Under the pieces are notes generated by a model that did not search any database, was not told the origin of the DNA, and was given only the letters and a program-made list of their open reading frames with translations. From positions 2,170,001 to 2,234,000 of the forward strand of contig NZ_CP072876.1 in the NCBI RefSeq assembly GCF_017968845.1: a DNA stretch of 64,000 nucleotides, given 5' to 3'. Of the stretch, positions 1,008-43,770 are shown piece after piece (positions within the stretch are counted from its first letter, which is position 1; each line of letters starts with the position of its first letter). A program made the position numbers and the translations under genes. The DNA comes from Microbacterium sp. NIBRBAC000506063 (GTDB lineage: Bacteria; Actinomycetota; Actinomycetes; Actinomycetales; Microbacteriaceae).

Positions 1008-2321
1008 GTGGACATCCTGCTGTATCTGGGCGGCATCCTCTTCATGGTGCTGGCCCTGACGATCTCGATCGCCCTGCACGAGATCGGGCACCTCGTGCCG
1101 GCGAAGCTCTTCGGCGTGCGAGTGAGCCAGTACATGGTCGGCTTCGGCAAGACCCTGTGGTCGACGCGCCGGGGCGGGACCGAGTACGGCGTCAAGGCGC
1201 TGCCGCTGGGCGGCTACATCTCGATGGCGGGCATGTACCCGCACTCGGGGGCGACCAAGCCCGCCGGCGGAATGTTCCGCACGCTCGTGCAGGAGGCGCG
1301 CGACGCCAACGACGAGACGATCGTGGCGGATGCCGAGACGGGTGTCTTCTACCGGCTGCCGGTGTGGAAGCGGGTGATCGTGATGCTCGGCGGCCCGTTC
1401 ATGAACCTGCTCCTGGCGCTCCTGGTCTTCACGATCGTCTTCTCGGGGATCGGCGTGCAGCAGGGCACGACGACCATCGCGACGGTGTCGGAATGCGTGC
1501 TGCCTGCCGGCTCGACCCAGACCGAGTGCGGGCCGGAGGATCCGGCGGCGCCGGCGGCCGAGGCCGGGCTCCTCCCGGGCGATGTGCTGCTGTCGGTCGA
1601 CGGGCAGGACGTGGAGACCTTCGCGGATGCCGCGGCGATCGTCCAGGCCTCGCCGGGGGAGTCGCTTCCCGTCGTCGTCGAGCGCGACGGTGCCGAGGTG
1701 GCGCTCACGCTGACGCCGGTGCTCGCCGAGCGTGCCGTGTTCGACGAGCGTGGGCAGCCCGTCGTCGATGAGGACGGCGCCCCGGTGACGACCGAGGTCG
1801 GCTACGTGGGCATGGGCGCACAGGTGAGCTTCGTGCCTCAGCCGATCGGCGCCGGCGCGGAGTTCACCTGGGAGAACACGCAGGCCGTCGCCGGGATCAT
1901 CGTCCACCTGCCCGCACGTCTCTGGGATGTCGCGGTCTCGACCTTCACGGGCGGTGAGCGCGACCCGAACGGGCCGCTCAGCGTCGTGGGAGTCGGGCGC
2001 CTGGCCGGCGAGGTTGCCGCCACCGATGCGCCCGTGCTCAACCGCGTGTGGACGCTGCTGAGCCTGACGGGGTCGCTGAATATCGCCCTGTTCGTCTTCA
2101 ACCTCATTCCGCTCCTGCCGCTGGACGGCGGACACGTCGTCGTCGCGCTCTGGGACGGGCTGCGCCGCGCCTGGGCGAAGCTCTGGCGCCGTCCGCCGCC
2201 CGCGCCCGTGGATGCGACGCGGCTCGTGCCCGTCACGATCGTCGTGGCGGCGCTGCTGATCGGCATGGGCGCGCTCCTGCTCATCGCCGATCTCGTCAAT
2301 CCCGTCAACCTGCTGGGGTAG
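1008..2321 (+). CDS. rip: M50 site-2 protease (RseP/Rip1-type)
   Basis: Intramembrane zinc metalloprotease expected to cut membrane-anchored substrates such as anti-sigma factors. The 437-residue product has the zinc motif HEIGH at residues 24-28 inside the first membrane segment, a central PDZ-like region (roughly 170-235, around LLPGDVLLSVDGQ) and the second catalytic motif LPLDGGH near residue 375, followed by a last membrane helix. Length and order match RseP-type proteins; in Mycobacterium the homologue Rip1 (Rv2869c) lies between dxr and ispG. Here ispG follows only after about 4.5 kb of inserted genes, and no dxr is in the window. GTG start fixed by the TACGGT box. Frame intact. Confidence 0.9.
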   Translation: MDILLYLGGILFMVLALTISIALHEIGHLVPAKLFGVRVSQYMVGFGKTLWSTRRGGTEYGVKALPLGGYISMAGMYPHSGATKPAGGMFRTLVQEARDANDETIVADAETGVFYRLPVWKRVIVMLGGPFMNLLLALLVFTIVFSGIGVQQGTTTIATVSECVLPAGSTQTECGPEDPAAPAAEAGLLPGDVLLSVDGQDVETFADAAAIVQASPGESLPVVVERDGAEVALTLTPVLAERAVFDERGQPVVDEDGAPVTTEVGYVGMGAQVSFVPQPIGAGAEFTWENTQAVAGIIVHLPARLWDVAVSTFTGGERDPNGPLSVVGVGRLAGEVAATDAPVLNRVWTLLSLTGSLNIALFVFNLIPLLPLDGGHVVVALWDGLRRAWAKLWRRPPPAPVDATRLVPVTIVVAALLIGMGALLLIADLVNPVNLLG

Positions 2322-2339
2322 CTGCCGTCGCCGCACGGA

Positions 2340-2369
2340 TGTCGAAAACGGGCTTGCCCGTTCGCTGAC
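2340..2369 (+). promoter_or_regulatory. Candidate ECF42-type promoter, copy 1
   Basis: TGTCGA at 2340-2345 followed, after 17 bases, by CGCTGAC at 2363-2369, upstream of the first DGPF gene. From memory, the published ECF42 target motif has TGTCGA at -35 and CGA/TC at -10; the -35 matches exactly, the -10 only loosely. The whole stretch up to the start codon is repeated before the second DGPF gene (2797). Confidence 0.5.
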
Positions 2370-2418
2370 GCCATGCGACGGTCGAATCGGCCGTGCGATA
2401 CGCCGACGGAGGAGACCC

Positions 2419-2786
2419 ATGAAGTACGTGCTGATGTTCACGTCCACCCTGTGCACGATGCGGCGGTGCCGCCGGAGCGCGCGCAAGAGATCTATGCGCA
2501 GGTCTACGAATGGTTCCAGCAGAACGCGGCGGTCTTCGCGGAAGCGGGCGCCGAGCTCCAGTCGGTCGAGACGGCCAGCACCGTGCGCCATCGCGCGGGC
2601 GGGCCGGTGATCGTCGACGGGCCGTTCACCGAGGCGCGGGAGGCGGTGGGCGGATTCGCCGTGGTCGATGTGCCGGATCGGGATGCCGCGCTCGCGCTCG
2701 CCCGCACGTGGCCGATGCTCGTCCTGCCGGGCACGTCGGTCGAAGTGCGGCCGATGGTGACCGACTACAGCCAGTTCGAAGAGTGA
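2419..2786 (+). CDS. YCII/DGPF-domain protein, copy 1
   Basis: Small cytoplasmic protein of the YCII-related (DGPF) family, 122 residues when repaired. It begins MKYVLMFTS and carries the diagnostic DGPFTEA motif around residue 67, then the GGFAVVDVPD segment. Biochemical function of the family is unclear; members are the usual gene neighbours and targets of ECF42 sigma factors, and such a sigma factor lies two genes downstream. A C is missing from the run at 2447-2449 (ACCCCT read as ACCCT), which breaks the frame after nine residues. The ATG at 2419 is preceded by GGAGGAG. Sister of the next gene; the pair is a tandem duplication including upstream DNA. Confidence 0.85.
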
Positions 2787-2796
2787 TCCCCGAAAG

Positions 2797-2826
2797 TGTC
2801 GAAAACGGCCTTGCCCGTTCGCTGAC
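2797..2826 (+). promoter_or_regulatory. Candidate ECF42-type promoter, copy 2
   Basis: TGTCGA at 2797-2802 and CGCTGAC at 2820-2826, same 17-base spacing as copy 1. The roughly 80 bases from here to the ATG at 2878 are nearly identical to 2340-2418, so promoter and gene were duplicated together. Confidence 0.5.
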
Positions 2827-2877
2827 TCCATGCGACGGTCGAATCGGCCTCGCGACACGCAGACGGAAGGAAGACCC

Positions 2878-3245
2878 ATGAAGTACGTACTCATGTTCAC
2901 ATCGGATCCCGAGCGGGATGCCGCGGTCCCGCCGAGCGGCAGGAGGCCGATCTGCAGCGGATCTTCTCCTGGTTCGAGGAGAACGCCGCGGTCGTCCTCG
3001 ACGGCGGCGCGGCGCTGCACGGAGTGGAGACCGCGACGACCGTGCGCGCGGGCGGGGAGGGCCCGGTCGTCGTCGACGGCCCCTTCTCGGAGGCCAAGGA
3101 GGTGATCGGCGGCTTCTCGATCGTCGACGTGCCGGACCTGGACGCCGCCATCGCGCTCGCGAAGACCTGGCCGTCGCTGGAGCTTCCCGGCAACTCCGTC
3201 GAGATCCGGCCGATGTACGACGATGAGGAGCTCTTCGGGCAGTGA
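2878..3245 (+). CDS. YCII/DGPF-domain protein, copy 2
   Basis: Second DGPF-family protein, also 122 residues when repaired. Starts MKYVLMFTSDPE, with the DGPFSEA motif near residue 67 and GGFSIVDVPDLDAA after it. One G is missing near 2934 (CCGGAG read as CCGAG), moving the remainder to another frame. The stop TGA (3243-3245) overlaps the ATG of the sigma-factor gene, so translation of the two is probably coupled. Role inferred from the ECF42 context only. Confidence 0.85.
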
Positions 3246-4491
3246 TGCGATCGGATGCCGCGAACGACCGTGCGGGGGCATCGGATGCGGTGCTCGCGGA
3301 GACGGTCCGTGCCGAGGCGGGGCGGATCGTCGGGGCGCTCGCGCGCTTCTTCGGCAGCATCGACGTGGCAGAGGAGGCCGTCGCCGAGGCGGTCGAGGAG
3401 GCGCTGGGCGCGTGGCGGCGGGCGGGGGTGCCGCCAGGCGCCGCCGCATGGCTCACGATCGCCGCACGCCGCAACGCCCTCGATCGGATGCGGCGCGCGA
3501 AGCTCCATCGCGACCGGCTCCCGCTCCTCGCGCCGATGCCCGACGCCGTGCCGCCCGCCGGGCAGGGCGGGGAGGCGGACGACAGGCTTCCGCTGCTGTT
3601 CGGATGCTGCCACCCGGCGCTCTCGCCGGAGGCGAAGCTCGCCCTGACGCTGCGCGCGGTGCTCGGCGTGACCACGGCGCAGATCGCTCAGGCGACGCAG
3701 GAGCCGGCGGCGACGGTCGGACAGCGGATCAGCCGGGCCAAACGGAAGATGGCGGCCTCCGGCATCCGACTGCGGATCCCGGAGGGCGCGGAGCGCGCAT
3801 CACGCCTGGATCTCGTGCTCACGGTGATCTCCGTGATGTACGACACCGCCCATCATCGTCCCGGCGCCGACGCGCGGGCCGATCGCGATCTCGCCGAGGA
3901 CGCGCTCTGGCTCGCCTCGGTCGTGGCCGAGGAGCTCCCGGGCGAGGCCGAGGCGCACGGCTTGCGGGCGCTGCTGCTGTTCCATCGGGCGCGGGACCGT
4001 GCGCGGTCGCAGGGCGGCGAGTTCGTGCCGCTGCCGCAGCAGGATCGACGGCTGTGGGATCGATCGCTGATCGCCGCCGCCCACTCCTCGCTGGAGCGCG
4101 CGGCGGCGCTGCGGCGGCCGGGGCGATGGCAGCTGCAGGCCGCGATCGCGGCGTGCCACTCGGATGCGGCCGAGGCGGCCGACACCGACTGGCCCAGGTG
4201 CTCGCCCTCTACGATCTGCTGCTGCGCTACGACTCCTCGCCGTTCGTGCGGTTGAACCGCGCGGTCGCGCTCGCCGAGGTGGCCGGGGCCGAACCGGCGC
4301 TCATCGAGGTCGACGCCCTCGCGGGGCGCTTCGAAGAGTACCACCTCTGGTGGGCGCTGCGGGCGGATCTGCTGCGGCGGCTCGGGAAGCCGGATGCCGC
4401 GCGCGGCGCCGACCGCCGTGCCCATGCGCTCGCGGCGAACGAGGCCGAGCGGCGTCTGCTGGCCGCGCGGTTGGACGCCCCCGGTCGTTGA
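3245..4491 (+). CDS. ECF42-type RNA polymerase sigma factor with TPR-like C-terminus
   Basis: Alternative sigma factor; repaired length 415 residues, typical of ECF42 proteins, which carry a long C-terminal extension. Region 2 (FFGSIDVAEEAVAEA, then ARRNALDRMRRAKL) and region 4 (ALTLRAVLGVTTAQIAQATQ...VGQRISRAKRK) are clear; residues about 200-415 form an Ala/Leu-rich helical extension with LYDLLLRY and LNRAVALAEVAG, as in the TPR-like domain of the group. One C is lost at 4193-4195 (CCCCAG read as CCCAG). It overlaps the upstream DGPF gene and no anti-sigma gene is present, as usual for this group. Its stop codon TGA lies inside a CGGTCGTTGAGCGAG repeat, so the repeat set the protein's end. 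Confidence 0.88.
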
Positions 4492-4580
4492 GCGAGGCGA
4501 CCCCGGTGACTTCGCGACGGGCAGGCTGCGGGCGATCAGCCCCTCCCGGTCGTTGAGCGAGCGCAGCGAGACGAAACGCC
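4482..4580. repeat. CGGTCGTTGAGCGAG dispersed repeats, two copies
   Basis: Copies at 4482-4496 and 4547-4580; the second continues into GCGCAGCGAGACGAAACGCC. Same family as at 20684, 27625, 39027, 42673, 57146 and 59901. The first copy contains the stop codon of the sigma-factor gene. Confidence 0.8.
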
Positions 4581-4617
4581 CTGGCGTCGATCGCGATCAA
4601 GTGGCATGCGAGGGTAC

Positions 4618-4697
4618 AGGGGGTCTGCGGGAGCGAGCCTCGGGAGGGCCCACGCGAAGCGTGGGAGGGACCCTCCGCTCGCTCCCGCAGACCCCCG
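4618..4697. terminator. Long compound hairpin between convergent genes
   Basis: GGGGGTCTGCGGGAGCGAGC pairs perfectly over 20 bases with its complement ending near 4696; inside lies a second hairpin, CCCACGC-GAA-GCGTGGG. It sits between the convergent sigma-factor and anthranilate-synthase genes, so it probably ends both transcripts. No clear T run; could also be a dispersed palindrome. Nothing coding is seen in 4492-4724. Confidence 0.55.
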
Positions 4698-4724
4698 GAG
4701 CCCGACCACAACCAGTCCAGCCCT

Positions 4725-6629
4725 TCAGCTCAGCGCGTGAGCCACCAGCCGCTCCAGCGTCGTCATGCCGTCGCGCGAGAGGATCGACTCCAGGTGCCCC
4801 TGCACGGAGGCGAAGCCTTCGCCGCGCAGCGCGTAGACATCGCCGCTGGCGGCATCCGCTGACACCTCGGCCGCGCCGACCTGTGTCGTCCCGGGGGCGA
4901 CGCGCGCCGTGAAGGTGTTGTAGAAGCCGATCGAGGCGTCTTCGCCGAAGACGGGCACGCTCTTCTGCAGGCCCTGATGAGGCGCCGCGAGCGGCTCGAG
5001 GGCGATGCCGAAGCCGTCGCTGAGGATCTGGTGACTCAGGCACACGGCCAGCAGCGGTGCGCCGGAGCCACGGCGGCGGGCGACGATCTCGCGCATGCGG
5101 GCGATGCGGGGAGGGCGGCGTCACGCGGATCACCGGGGCCCGGGCCGGCGACGAGGAGATCGGCGGAGTCGACGGCGGCATCCGACACCTCGTCCCAGTT
5201 CACGATCTCGACCGAGAGGCCCAGATGGCGCAGCTGGTGCGCGAGCATTGTGGTGAAACGGTCCTCGGCGTCGACCAGGAGGGCCGAGCGGCCGGCGAAG
5301 GCGTCGCCGGTGTGGTCCTGCTGCGGCTGCAGCCAGAAGTCCGCGAGGCGCGAGTTGCGGGAGGCGAGAAGGGCGGCGACGTCGGGGTCCGCGGCGAGGT
5401 CCGTGTGCTCGCCCGGGGCGTCGGCGTCCTCGCGGGCTTCGGCGACGGTATCGCGCGGGATCGCCCCGATCGCCCCCAGCACGCCGGCCGCCTTGCCATG
5501 TGTCTCGCCGACCTCGCCGTGCGGGTCGGAGTGTCGCACGAGCGTCGCCCCGACCGGGACGCGCAGGGTCTGCTCATCGAGGTACACGGTGCGGATGAGG
5601 ATCGGCGCGTCCAGATCGTGCGAGCCGGCATCGTTCGGGGTGAACAGCGCAGCGACGCCCGAGTAGTAGCCGCGGGGTTCACGCTCATGGCGTCGGATGA
5701 CCGTGCAGGCGTTCTGCATGGGCGACCCGGTCACGGTGGGCGCGAACATCGTCTCGCGCAGGATGTCGCGGGGTCCATCGTGCTGCGCCCGCGCAGCATG
5801 TACTCGGTGTGCGTCAGGCGCGACATCTGCTTGAGGTGGGGGCCGGTGATCCGGCCGCCGTCGGAGCAGACGGCGCTCATCATCTTCAGCTCTTCGTCGA
5901 CGACCATGAACAGCTCCTCGGTCTCCTTGGTGGAGGTGAGGAACTCGATGAGCGATTCCTTCGTCGCCCCGCCCGCCGGATGCCGGAACGTGCCCGAGAT
6001 CGGGTTCATGGTGACGACGCCGCCCCGGGCGACGACGTGCGCCTCAGGGCTCGCACCGACGGCGATCACACCGGGGGTGACGACGGCGAAGGTCCAGTAC
6101 GCGCCCCGCTCGTGGGCGAGCAGCGCCCGGAACCAGGTGAGGGCCGCCTGTCGCTCGTCGGCGTCTATGCGGGCGGTGAAGTCGCGGCGGATGACGAAGT
6201 TCGCTCCCTCGCCGCGGCCGATCTCGTCGGCGATGACCCGCTCGACGATCTCGGCATATTCCTCGTCGGCGAGGTCGAATCCGGCATCCGACAACGGCAC
6301 GGCGACCTGGGGAGGGCGGCCAGTGCCGCTTCGCGGGGGAAGTGCCGGTGCTCGTCGACGAGCAGGCAGCGCAGCGGCGCCCCGTCGTCCTGCGCGACGA
6401 AGCCGCGCTCGCGCACCTGCCGGTAAGGGACCATCGCGAACACCTCGCGCGCCTCCGTGCCGGTCCCCGCGCCCGTCGACGAGTGCAGCGGGATGTCGGC
6501 GAGCAGGTCCACATCGCGGACCTCGCCCGTGAGCACCTCGACGGTCTCCGCGCCGTCGCGCGCGATGAGCACGAAGGAGGCGGCCGGATCGGCGGCGAGC
6601 TGGGCGAGCAGGGCGGCGGGATCGGTCAT
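4725..6629 (-). CDS. Fused anthranilate/ADIC synthase (TrpE-TrpG fusion, PhzE order)
   Basis: Chorismate-using synthase with its own glutaminase; repaired length 635 residues, as in PhzE and fused TrpE(G). Residues about 1-430 form the chorismate-binding part (NPISGTFRHPAGG, DEELKMMSAVCSDGGRITGP, LTHTEYMLRGRS, REPRGYYSGVAALF). The rest is a class-I glutamine amidotransferase with VAGPGPGDPRD and the nucleophile region AVCLSHQIL. PhzE enzymes make ADIC; fused TrpE enzymes make anthranilate. The tandem-Trp attenuator just upstream points to tryptophan supply, and no other phenazine gene is nearby. Three C deletions break the frame, at 6309-6312, 5770-5773 and 5108-5111. ATG at 6629 follows AGGAGTGATCG. 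Confidence 0.88.
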
Positions 6630-6660
6630 CGATCACTCCTGGGATTCGGGCGGCTCAACC

Positions 6661-6687
6661 AAGAAAGACCGCCGATGCGGGCGGTCT
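6661..6687 (-). terminator. Trp attenuator terminator hairpin
   Basis: On the minus strand AGACCGCC (6687-6680) pairs with GGCGGTCT (6673-6666), followed by TTTCTT. The 5' arm can instead pair with GGCGGT at 6715-6710 just after the leader stop, forming an antiterminator. A third pairing, ACGCGAAC (6746-6739) with GTTCGCGT (6707-6700), completes the mutually exclusive set. Confidence 0.85.
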
Positions 6688-6714
6688 GGTTTCGTGGGAA
6701 CGCGAACACACCGC

Positions 6715-6750
6715 CTAGGAAGCGGGCCACCAGGTGGAGTTCGCGTGCAT
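6715..6750 (-). CDS. trpL: Trp leader peptide with tandem Trp codons
   Basis: Eleven-codon ORF reading MHANSTWWPAS, with two adjacent TGG codons at 6732-6727. A ribosome stalled there leaves GGCGGT (6715-6710) free to form the antiterminator; a ribosome reaching the stop covers it and lets the terminator form. This is the layout of known actinobacterial trp attenuators. A TAGTTT -10 box lies six bases before the ATG, so the transcript probably begins at the leader start codon. Confidence 0.88.
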   Translation of the reverse strand: MHANSTWWPAS

Positions 6751-6756
6751 GAGCCG

Positions 6757-6762
6757 AAACTA
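6757..6762 (-). promoter_or_regulatory. -10 box TAGTTT of the trp leader
   Basis: TAGTTT on the minus strand, six bases before the leader ATG at 6750. Divergent from and close to the ispG promoter (6793). Confidence 0.55.
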
Positions 6763-6792
6763 TCACACAGCGCGTGTTCACCCGGCGCGTCG

Positions 6793-6798
6793 TAGGCT
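6793..6798 (+). promoter_or_regulatory. -10 box TAGGCT, leaderless promoter of ispG
   Basis: TAGGCT, six bases before the GTG at 6805. Confidence 0.6.
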
Positions 6799-6804
6799 GG
6801 TGGG

Positions 6805-7956
6805 GTGCCAGCAGTCAATCTGGGGATGCCCAAGGTTCCCGAAGTCCTCGCTCCGCGACGCAAGTCCCGGCAGATCCGCGTCGGAAAGGTCCTCGTCGGC
6901 GGCAACGCCCCCGTGAGCGTGCAGTCGATGACCACGACCAAGACGACCGACATCAACGGCACTCTGCAGCAGATCGCCGAGCTCACGGCATCCGGATGCG
7001 AGATCGTGCGCGTCGCCGTCCCCTCGCAGGACGACGCCGATGTGCTGCACATCATCGCGAAGAAGTCGCAGATCCCGGTCATCGCCGACATCCACTTCCA
7101 GCCGAAGTACGTCTTCCAGGCGATCGACGCCGGCTGCGCCGCGGTGCGGGTGAACCCGGGCAACATCCGCAAGTTCGACGACCAGGTCGGTGCGATCGCG
7201 AAGGCGGCGAAGGATGCCGGTGTCTCGCTGCGCATCGGCGTGAACGCCGGCTCCCTCGACAGGCGCCTGCTGGAGAAGTACGGCAAGGCGACGCCAGAGG
7301 CGCTCATGGAGAGCGCCGTCTGGGAGGCGTCGCTGTTCGAGGAGCACGATTTCCACGACTTCAAGATCTCGGTCAAGCACAACGACCCGATCGTCATGGT
7401 CAAGGCCTACCGGCTGCTCGCCGAGCGCGGCGACTGGCCGCTGCACCTGGGCGTGACCGAGGCCGGTCCGGCGTTCCAGGGCACGATCAAGTCGGCGACG
7501 GCGTTCGGCATCCTGCTCGCCGAGGGCATCGGCGACACGATCCGTGTGTCGCTGTCGGCACCGCCGGCCGAAGAGGTCAAGGTCGGCCACCAGATCCTGC
7601 AGTCGCTGAACCTGCGCGAACGCAAGCTCGAGATCGTCTCCTGCCCCTCGTGCGGGCGGGCGCAGGTCGACGTCTACTCGCTCGCCGACAGCGTGACCGA
7701 AGGGCTGAAGGACATGACCGTGCCGCTGCGCGTGGCCGTCATGGGCTGTGTCGTCAACGGTCCGGGCGAGGCCCGCGAGGCCGATCTGGGCGTGGCCAGC
7801 GGCAACGGCAAGGGGCAGATCTTCGTCAAGGGCGAGGTCATCAAGACCGTGCCCGAGGCCGAGATCGTGCAGACCCTCATCGAAGAGGCCAATCGCATCG
7901 CCGCCGAGATGGGGGCGGACGCGCCCGTCGGCACGGCGCAGGTCATCACCGCGTAA
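6805..7956 (+). CDS. ispG: 4-hydroxy-3-methylbut-2-enyl diphosphate synthase
   Basis: Iron-sulfur enzyme of the MEP isoprenoid pathway, converting methylerythritol cyclodiphosphate to HMBPP. The 383-residue product is intact and full length: N-terminal TIM-barrel motifs ([62 protein letters not shown]) and the C-terminal cluster-binding part with CPSCGRAQ and [11 protein letters not shown] supplying the three cluster cysteines. GTG start supported by the leaderless -10 box. First gene of a run of close or overlapping genes reaching 10042. Follows the M50 protease in the conserved actinobacterial order, but with extra genes between. Confidence 0.97.
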
Positions 7957-43699: not shown

Positions 43700-43770
43700 G
43701 GTGCGTTGCCCGAGTGGTCAGGGAGCGGCCTGCAAAGCCGTGGACACGGGTTCGAATCCCGTACGCACCT
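43700..43770 (+). tRNA. tRNA-Cys (anticodon GCA)
   Basis: 71-base cloverleaf. Acceptor GGTGCGT pairs with ACGCACC and the discriminator is T; anticodon arm GCGGC-CTGCAAA-GCCGT gives anticodon GCA; T arm ACGGG-TTCGAAT-CCCGT. CCA is not encoded. U73 and the GCA anticodon are the identity elements of cysteine tRNA. Confidence 0.95.

What the first reader, a model, noticed from the sequence alone, without database searches (positions are those of the whole stretch)
6661..6762. Complete tryptophan attenuator, itself leaderless, controlling a PhzE-type fused synthase
Seen: a minus-strand 11-codon ORF (MHANSTWWPAS) with tandem TGG codons, a terminator (GACCGCC/GGCGGTC plus TTTCTT), an antiterminator partner (GGCGGT right after the stop) and a 1:2 pairing (ACGCGAAC/GTTCGCGT), all mutually exclusive. 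A TAGTTT -10 box stands six bases before the leader ATG, so the ribosome would load on the very 5' end. The controlled enzyme has the domain order of phenazine PhzE, yet Trp control says it feeds tryptophan. Known: actinobacterial trp leaders exist. Inference: the leaderless start would tie ribosome loading directly to transcription start.
Basis: partly seen in the sequence, partly recalled or inferred. Interest (0 to 1): 0.75.

Follow-up and report, generated by a model that had tools for sequence, protein, structure and literature searches.

The report
Tryptophan attenuator of fused anthranilate synthase
A short stretch in front of a probable tryptophan-pathway gene of a Microbacterium-like bacterium carries a well-built tryptophan-sensing switch whose message probably starts right at the first codon; it is real and widely conserved, but the same arrangement is already described in Streptomyces and Sinorhizobium.

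Summary
The minus strand of 6762-6661 holds a -10 box, an 11-codon leader (MHANSTWWPAS), competing 1:2, antiterminator and terminator pairings and a U-rich tail, ahead of a fused chorismate-amination enzyme (ATG 6629, end 4725). Of 80 related loci, 77 keep a tandem-Trp leader; two are contig ends and one lacks it. A TANNNT hexamer lies 6-7 nt before the chosen start codon in 77 of 78 leaders (0.16 expected), with no Shine-Dalgarno core just upstream. The terminator is near-invariant; the 1:2 pairing covaries. A leaderless ribosome-mediated Trp attenuator is well supported, though no transcript was measured. The 'PhzE yet Trp' puzzle largely dissolves: the enzyme groups with Streptomyces-type attenuator-linked fused synthases, apart from eight plasmid-borne PhzE-type enzymes, seven of which follow an isochorismatase gene. 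Four complete genomes of its genus hold only two other chorismate enzymes (PabB-like and isochorismate synthase), so it is probably their sole anthranilate synthase. Novelty is low: S. lividans trpL1-trpE is reported leaderless from RNA-seq, and S. meliloti trpL-trpE(G) RNA also starts at the leader AUG. The window's gene is frame-broken, but so are 19 of 33 conserved genes there, which points to assembly error.

The parts
6757..6762 (-). -10 box TAGTTT, with TGTG just upstream (extended -10); predicted to place the transcription start at the leader ATG
   Evidence: spacing 6-7 nt in 77 of 78 homologous leaders, G at -14 in 65 of 78; background 7 in 7020 positions
6715..6750 (-). leader ORF MHANSTWWPAS, ATG 6750, stop TAG 6717-6715
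   Evidence: leader lengths 10-13 codons in 78 sequences
6727..6732 (-). tandem Trp codons TGG TGG, the sensor
   Evidence: invariant in the 57 of 78 sequences that were aligned
6739..6746 (-). 5' arm of the 1:2 hairpin (ACGCGAAC), inside the leader ORF
   Evidence: covaries with its partner
6700..6707 (-). 3' arm of the 1:2 hairpin (GTTCGCGT)
6710..6715 (-). antiterminator 5' arm GGCGGT (overlaps the last base of the stop codon); pairs with ACCGCC of the terminator's 5' arm
6667..6686 (-). intrinsic terminator stem-loop GACCGCC-CGCATC-GGCGGTC
   Evidence: core in 78 of 78
6661..6666 (-). U-rich tail TTTCTT
   Evidence: at least 3 T in the first 8 bases after the stem in 72 of 78
4725..6629 (-). 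fused chorismate-binding + glutamine amidotransferase enzyme (TrpE(G)/PhzE domain order); AGGAG 7-11 nt before the ATG; frame-broken in this assembly
   Evidence: intact relatives:
6805..7956 (+). divergent ispG, 54 bp between its GTG and the leader ATG; not part of the switch, defines its upstream edge
   Evidence: divergent ispG in 65 of 77 loci

Best explanation
A classical ribosome-mediated Trp transcription attenuator on a leaderless transcript, controlling a fused anthranilate synthase gene; it is the Microbacterium counterpart of the Streptomyces trpL1-trpE pair. RNA polymerase starts at or next to the leader ATG, set by a -10 box 6-7 nt upstream (promoter anatomy shown; RNA 5' end inferred). 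A ribosome binds the 5'-terminal AUG (inferred). With low charged tRNA-Trp it stalls on the WW codons, blocks the 5' arm of the 1:2 hairpin, and leaves GGCGGT, whose GCGG lies 12-13 nt after the WW codons, free to pair with ACCGCC and form the antiterminator, so the gene is read (inferred from the anatomy). With enough Trp the ribosome reaches the stop, covers GGCGGT, and the GACCGCC/GGCGGTC terminator forms. Without translation the 1:2 hairpin forms and termination is the default. The enzyme most probably makes anthranilate for tryptophan and is the only candidate anthranilate synthase found in this genus.
For: WW leader in 77 of 80 loci (the best 80 of 577 relatives) and in 23 of 24 fused-enzyme loci found across 199 genomes of the family. 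TANNNT 6-7 nt before the start in 77 of 78, SD core 0 of 78 in -18..-4, 0.16 expected. Terminator core in 78 of 78; distance from WW to GCGG 12-13 nt in 73 of the 76 sequences where it was found, which suits a ribosome footprint (footprint size recalled). 1:2 arms pair better with their own partner than with other sequences' (mean -17.3 against -15.3 kcal/mol, 0 of 2000 permutations as good, 66 distinct of 78 sequences). RNA free from nt 35 gives an antiterminator of -16.6 kcal/mol before the terminator 3' arm is made; RNA free from nt 48 forms the terminator. trpD in 5 of 5 genomes of the genus. Enzyme clade. Printed precedent: S. lividans trpL1 leaderless.
Against: No transcript, Trp response or enzyme activity was measured. 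Terminator and antiterminator are so conserved that only the two outer terminator pairs show compensatory change, so their pairing rests mainly on sequence, not covariation. At equilibrium the terminator wins even when the region from nt 35 on is free, so antitermination needs kinetic, co-transcriptional folding. 6 of 78 sequences have at most two T in the first 8 bases after the stem. 7 of 78 have an SD-like 4-mer within the wider stretch -30..-4. The window's gene copy is frame-broken. The three active-site positions said to differ between PhzE and anthranilate synthase do not tell the two apart in this set. The PabB-like proteins score just under the PabB cut-off (316-327 against 328 bits), so a second anthranilate-forming activity from PabB is not excluded.
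Confidence: 0.9

Rival explanations
1. The enzyme is an ADIC synthase (true PhzE function) for a secondary metabolite, and the Trp leader only uses Trp as a signal of aromatic supply.
For: Nearest solved structure is PhzE 3r74, 515 bits, far above any TrpE; same domain order; the active-site triplet S/A/T also occurs in enzymes inside phenazine clusters (L173, L174).
Against: In the intact relative G106 the neighbours scanned with Pfam are an M50 protease (convergent), ispG (divergent), a SIMPL-domain and a DUF1775 protein, and two ORFs without a family; no isochorismatase. By contrast 7 of 8 cluster-borne homologues have an isochorismatase directly upstream (six annotated; L174 unannotated but found by Pfam; L172 has none), and 0 of 8 have a WW leader. 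All eight lie on the other side of a supported branch (100/96). Canonical TrpE was not found in the 3 genomes of the genus although trpD is present. PhzA/PhzB was not found in 5 of 5, but the control rang nowhere, so this says nothing.
Confidence: 0.06
2. The leader is not leaderless: transcription starts further upstream and the TAGTTT is incidental.
For: No 5' end is mapped; positions around -35 show no clear conservation, so the promoter call rests on the -10 alone.
Against: Fixed 6-7 nt spacing in 77 of 78 against 0.16 expected; no SD core in -18..-4; ispG starts only 54 bp upstream and divergently. S. lividans trpL1 was reported leaderless from RNA-seq.
Confidence: 0.05
3. The locus is decaying: the fused gene is a pseudogene in this strain and the switch is a relic.
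For: The gene lies in three frames in the window.
Against: 19 of 33 conserved genes mapped on the window are broken across frames, including some with stretches up to 97 percent identical to the relative; trpD and another chorismate-binding gene of the same genome are split too; completeness is given as 76.8 percent in two contigs. Frame breaks are thus general in this assembly. The leader itself is intact.
Confidence: 0.05
4. The main role of the short terminated RNA or its peptide is in trans, as reported for Sinorhizobium rnTrpL/peTrpL, with cis attenuation secondary.
For: The same leaderless architecture makes a trans-acting sRNA and peptide in S. meliloti (passages).
Against: The leader peptide varies outside WW (MHANSTWWPAS, MRTITWWPAF, MSAHLSWWLTA and others), though PAS or PAF endings are common (37 of 78), while the pairing elements and their spacing are kept, which fits a cis role.
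Confidence: 0.03

Closest known systems
Streptomyces lividans trpL1-trpE (SLIV_27122/SLIV_27120), PMC8079986
   Same: Reported leaderless leader peptide with WWW before a monocistronic anthranilate synthase and a Rho-independent terminator (section 14 part 1 read). Leaders with the same NWWWTAHP core occur in 12 of 296 genomes of the class. In the 8 of these 12 looked at, the downstream protein is 59-62 percent identical to the window's in the chorismate domain, and a TANNNT box stands 7 nt (7 genomes, one of them at a start upstream of the one my script chose) or 6 nt (L118) before the start. The 4 genes read in full are fusions.
   Different: Leader 18 codons with WWW against 11 with WW; terminator AAGGCCGCC-type against AGACCGCC.
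Streptomyces venezuelae trp attenuator and fused anthranilate synthase
   Same: Cited by PMC1262725 as an experimentally studied trp attenuator and by PMC5897657 as a fused, monomeric anthranilate synthase (passage).
   Different: The primary papers were not seen (one was asked for and not held); details are second-hand. Whether the 5' end is leaderless there is not known to me.
Sinorhizobium meliloti trpL-trpE(G), PMC7298713
   Same: Trp attenuator before a fused trpE(G); the RNA starts with the ATG of trpL (passages read).
   Different: If the rhizobial enzyme belongs to TIGR01815 (recalled), the enzymes differ: the intact Microbacterium-type enzyme L137 scores 151 bits against a cut-off of 739. 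Similarity is in how it works.
PhzE, ADIC synthase of phenazine biosynthesis (PDB 3r74)
   Same: Full-length homology and domain order.
   Different: Different clade from the eight cluster-borne homologues sampled, no isochorismatase among the neighbours scanned, Trp leader present.

Membership tests
Ribosome-mediated Trp transcription attenuator | Short leader ORF with tandem Trp codons | tested here: met
   window plus 77 of 80 loci
Ribosome-mediated Trp transcription attenuator | Intrinsic terminator between leader and gene | tested here: met
   stem core in 78 of 78; weak U tract in 6 of 78
Ribosome-mediated Trp transcription attenuator | Mutually exclusive antiterminator and 1:2 pairings | tested here: met
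   1:2 covaries, antiterminator near-invariant so not tested by covariation
Ribosome-mediated Trp transcription attenuator | Read-through depends on charged tRNA-Trp | not testable with these tools
   no expression data
Leaderless leader transcript | -10 box at a fixed 6-7 nt before the start codon and no SD | tested here: met
   77 of 78; SD core 0 of 78 in -18..-4, 7 of 78 in -30..-4
Leaderless leader transcript | Mapped RNA 5' end at the AUG | not testable with these tools
   only precedent in S. lividans
Streptomyces-type fused anthranilate synthase TrpE(G) | Shared clade apart from cluster-borne PhzE-type enzymes | tested here: met
   branch support 100/96 with intact relatives; the window's own broken protein was not in the tree; sampling leaned towards relatives of the query and some cluster rows have long branches
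Streptomyces-type fused anthranilate synthase TrpE(G) | Makes anthranilate from chorismate and glutamine | not testable with these tools
   inferred from gene content
PhzE (ADIC synthase) | Works with a PhzD isochorismatase, usually adjacent | tested here: not met
   none among the neighbours scanned in intact relative G106; 7 of 8 cluster homologues have one. Isochorismatases elsewhere in the genome were not searched for
PhzE (ADIC synthase) | Active-site Ser217/Ser368/Thr369 | tested here: inconclusive
   here S/A/T in 79 of 80 loci, L045 undetermined, but phenazine-cluster enzymes L173 and L174 are S/A/T too
TrpE-clade3 TIGR01815 | Score above the curated cut-off of 739.15 bits | tested here: not met
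   151.4 bits for the intact relative L137, 124 for L139
Rfam RNA families | Match at gathering score over the leader | tested here: not met
   only a tRNA at 43700-43770 in the whole window

The most novel reading that the evidence does not exclude
In Microbacterium and some other Microbacteriaceae a PhzE-like fused enzyme has replaced canonical TrpE as the sole anthranilate synthase, taking its leaderless Trp attenuator with it as a portable control cassette, so that the cell's entire tryptophan branch is gated by how a leaderless AUG is loaded. Because the AUG is the RNA 5' end, stress that shifts 70S leaderless initiation would change tryptophan-gene read-through independently of Trp.
Probability: 0.2. 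Interest if true: 0.5.

Novelty: new member of a known kind. Interest (0 to 1): 0.27.

Why it matters
It extends the leaderless Trp attenuator described in Streptomyces to every Microbacterium-titled locus in the sample that had enough upstream sequence and to several other actinobacterial genera, and shows that it travels with the fused anthranilate synthase. It also flags an annotation trap: a gene that looks like phenazine PhzE is here probably the primary tryptophan enzyme, so its presence should not be read as a phenazine marker. The conserved -10-to-AUG spacing gives a natural set for asking how leaderless initiation is coupled to attenuation.

Tried and rejected
Tried: (1) An active-site signature to tell anthranilate from ADIC synthases. 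The three positions named in PMC5906492 (passages read) are S/A/T here and in the Streptomyces type, but also in 5 of the 7 plasmid-borne homologues scored, two of them in clear phenazine clusters; dropped as a discriminator. (2) The idea that genomes with a second, canonical TrpE would have lost the leader on the fused gene: refuted, 13 of 13 such genomes keep it, and 10 of 11 genomes without canonical TrpE have it. (3) Absence of PhzA/PhzB as evidence against phenazines: the control rang in none of 14 genomes, so nothing is concluded. (4) RNAalifold on the alignment of 57 finds only the terminator and a 4-bp helix over the Trp codons; the 1:2 arms were tested instead by partner swapping. (5) My first terminator finder gave none for 16 of 78 and a wrong stem for a few others; the anchored count found the core in all 78. 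(6) LLES as a Trp-feedback motif (recalled): a crude frame search of the loci is not informative. (7) Other WW leaders with a -10 in the trpD, PabB-like and isochorismate-synthase loci: none found.

Rejected: a chance leader; decay of the locus in the species; a phenazine role.

Full report
What is there. On the minus strand of 6762-6661 stand, in order, TAGTTT, six bases, an 11-codon ORF MHANSTWWPAS, GGCGGT starting on the last base of its stop codon, GTTCGCGT, and a GACCGCC/GGCGGTC stem with TTTCTT. All agree with the finding. The RNA folds with z -3.15. No Rfam family reached its gathering score over it. The gene behind it starts at ATG 6629 with AGGAG before it and carries chorismate-binding and glutamine-amidotransferase domains. 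ispG lies divergently at 6805-7956, 54 bp from the leader ATG.

Relatives. A scan of species genomes with one piece of the enzyme gave 577 relatives, of which the best 80 loci were kept, mostly Microbacterium. A search of the upstream DNA for short WW-containing ORFs, blind to promoter signals, found leaders in 77 of 80. L041 and L050 are contig ends; L041 still shows the terminator's 3' arm; L084 (Ornithinimicrobium) showed none. With the window this gives 78 leader sequences, 10-13 codons long, 62 of them 11 codons.

Leaderless start. In 77 of 78 sequences a TANNNT hexamer ends 6 (48) or 7 (29) nt before the start codon, and none has an SD core in -18..-4. The hexamer occurs at 7 of 7020 positions further upstream, so 0.16 would be expected. 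These sequences are related, so the figure shows constraint. A TG-rich extended -10 is visible and no -35 stands out. The exception L073 has a 14-codon alternative start with TACCCT 6 nt before it (read). Seven of 78 have an SD-like 4-mer somewhere in -30..-4.

Switch anatomy. The terminator core is present in 78 of 78, and GCGG follows the WW codons at 12-13 nt in 73 of the 76 sequences where it was found. Outer terminator pairs change in a compensated way (A-U to C-G in 11, G-C to A-U in 2 of 57). The 1:2 arms covary: own partners pair at -17.3 kcal/mol on average, permuted partners at -15.3, with 0 of 2000 permutations as good over 66 distinct sequences. Folded states fit the classical scheme: RNA free from nt 35 forms GGCGGU-ACCGCC pairing at -16.6 kcal/mol until the 3' terminator arm appears; RNA free from nt 48 forms the terminator; RNA without a ribosome forms 1:2 plus terminator. 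At equilibrium the terminator also wins in the stalled state, so antitermination must be kinetic.

The enzyme. By sequence the nearest solved structure of an intact relative (L137) is PhzE 3r74 (515 bits), and the enzyme falls far below the cut-offs of the TrpE families. Four complete genomes of this genus each hold exactly three chorismate-binding proteins. In all four, one is an isochorismate synthase above the TIGR00543 cut-off (L133-L136, 227-248 bits against 225). One is PabB-like: three of four were scanned and score 316-327 bits against a PabB cut-off of 328 (L129, L131, L132), the fourth (L130) was judged by eye. The third is the fused enzyme (L137-L140; two scanned). trpD is present in 5 of 5 genomes, the window's included. 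Among 199 genomes of the family, drawn evenly from a larger group, canonical actinobacterial TrpE (NF010086, E at most 1e-100) is found in 176, and the fused enzyme (E at most 1e-30) in 24. Eleven have only the fused enzyme, 13 both, 12 neither, 163 only the canonical one; three of the genomes without canonical TrpE (G171, G175, G188) were identified by elimination from the listing. The association is odds ratio 11.5, Fisher p 4e-6, not corrected for relatedness. All 3 genomes of the window's genus in that sample are fused-only; one of them is the error-rich window genome itself. Of the 24 fused loci, 23 have the WW leader, whether or not a second TrpE exists.

PhzE or TrpE(G)? Of 33 plasmid records with a homologue, eight were opened. 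Seven of eight have an isochorismatase directly upstream: six annotated, and in L174 an unannotated ORF of 158 aa that Pfam calls isochorismatase (E 3e-31); L172 has none. None of the eight has a WW leader. Around the intact fused gene of G106, Pfam finds an M50 protease (convergent), ispG (divergent), SIMPL and DUF1775 proteins and no isochorismatase; the window keeps the M50 gene at 1008-2318. A 56-row tree puts all eight plasmid homologues on one side of a branch with support 100/96 and the attenuator-linked enzymes, with two relatives lacking a leader, on the other. That group includes four complete fusions from the genus whose leaders share the NWWWTAHP core of the published Streptomyces trpL1. 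Sampling leaned towards relatives of the query, and several plasmid rows have long branches. The active-site positions once thought to differ do not discriminate.

State of the window's gene. Its coding sequence is spread over three frames. Mapping ORFs of a complete congener on the window shows 19 of 33 conserved genes broken in the same way, so this is most likely an assembly property.

What is known. Seliverstov 2005 (PMC1262725, two of three parts of the text read) predicted classical trp attenuators in Corynebacterium and Streptomyces and names C. glutamicum and S. venezuelae as studied cases. The S. lividans reannotation (PMC8079986, passages and part 1 of section 14) lists trpL1 MFAHSTRNWWWTAHPAAH, transcribed leaderless, with a Rho-independent terminator before monocistronic trpE, and a leaderless trpL2 before trpS. 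For S. meliloti the RNA starts at the trpL ATG before trpE(G) (PMC7298713, passages). Searches naming Microbacterium or Microbacteriaceae with these terms returned no paper on this locus (0 papers; 4 papers, none of which mentions Microbacteriaceae). The finding is therefore a new member of a known kind, in a genus where those two searches of that library showed no earlier report.

Noticed in passing
L169 (G164:C4:497000-500500), pattern at about 1065: A second leaderless-looking Trp leader, MMIHTAQWWWPTE with TACACT 7 nt before the ATG, lies before a tryptophanyl-tRNA synthetase gene (TIGR00233, above cut-off) in another genome of the genus, parallel to the published trpL2-trpS of S. lividans.
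   Followed up: partly
window 1-64000: 19 of 33 conserved genes are split across reading frames; frame breaks also hit trpD and another chorismate-binding gene elsewhere in the genome, which suggests an indel-rich assembly.
   Followed up: partly
L045: A contig filed under Stenotrophomonas maltophilia carries a Microbacterium-like fused synthase and leader; probably contamination.
   Followed up: no
genus g49: G048 has only the fused enzyme while G118 and G173 of the same genus have only canonical TrpE, a possible recent swap of anthranilate synthases within one genus.
   Followed up: no
L066, L068: Leaders with three Trp codons (WWW) instead of two, and GTG starts, in divergent Microbacterium species.
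   Followed up: no
window 1008-7956: The fused gene sits, in the opposite orientation, between an M50 protease gene and ispG, in the window (with about 2.4 kb extra DNA) and in G106. Divergent ispG is kept in 65 of 77 loci, 52 of them with a gap of 41-155 nt.
   Followed up: partly
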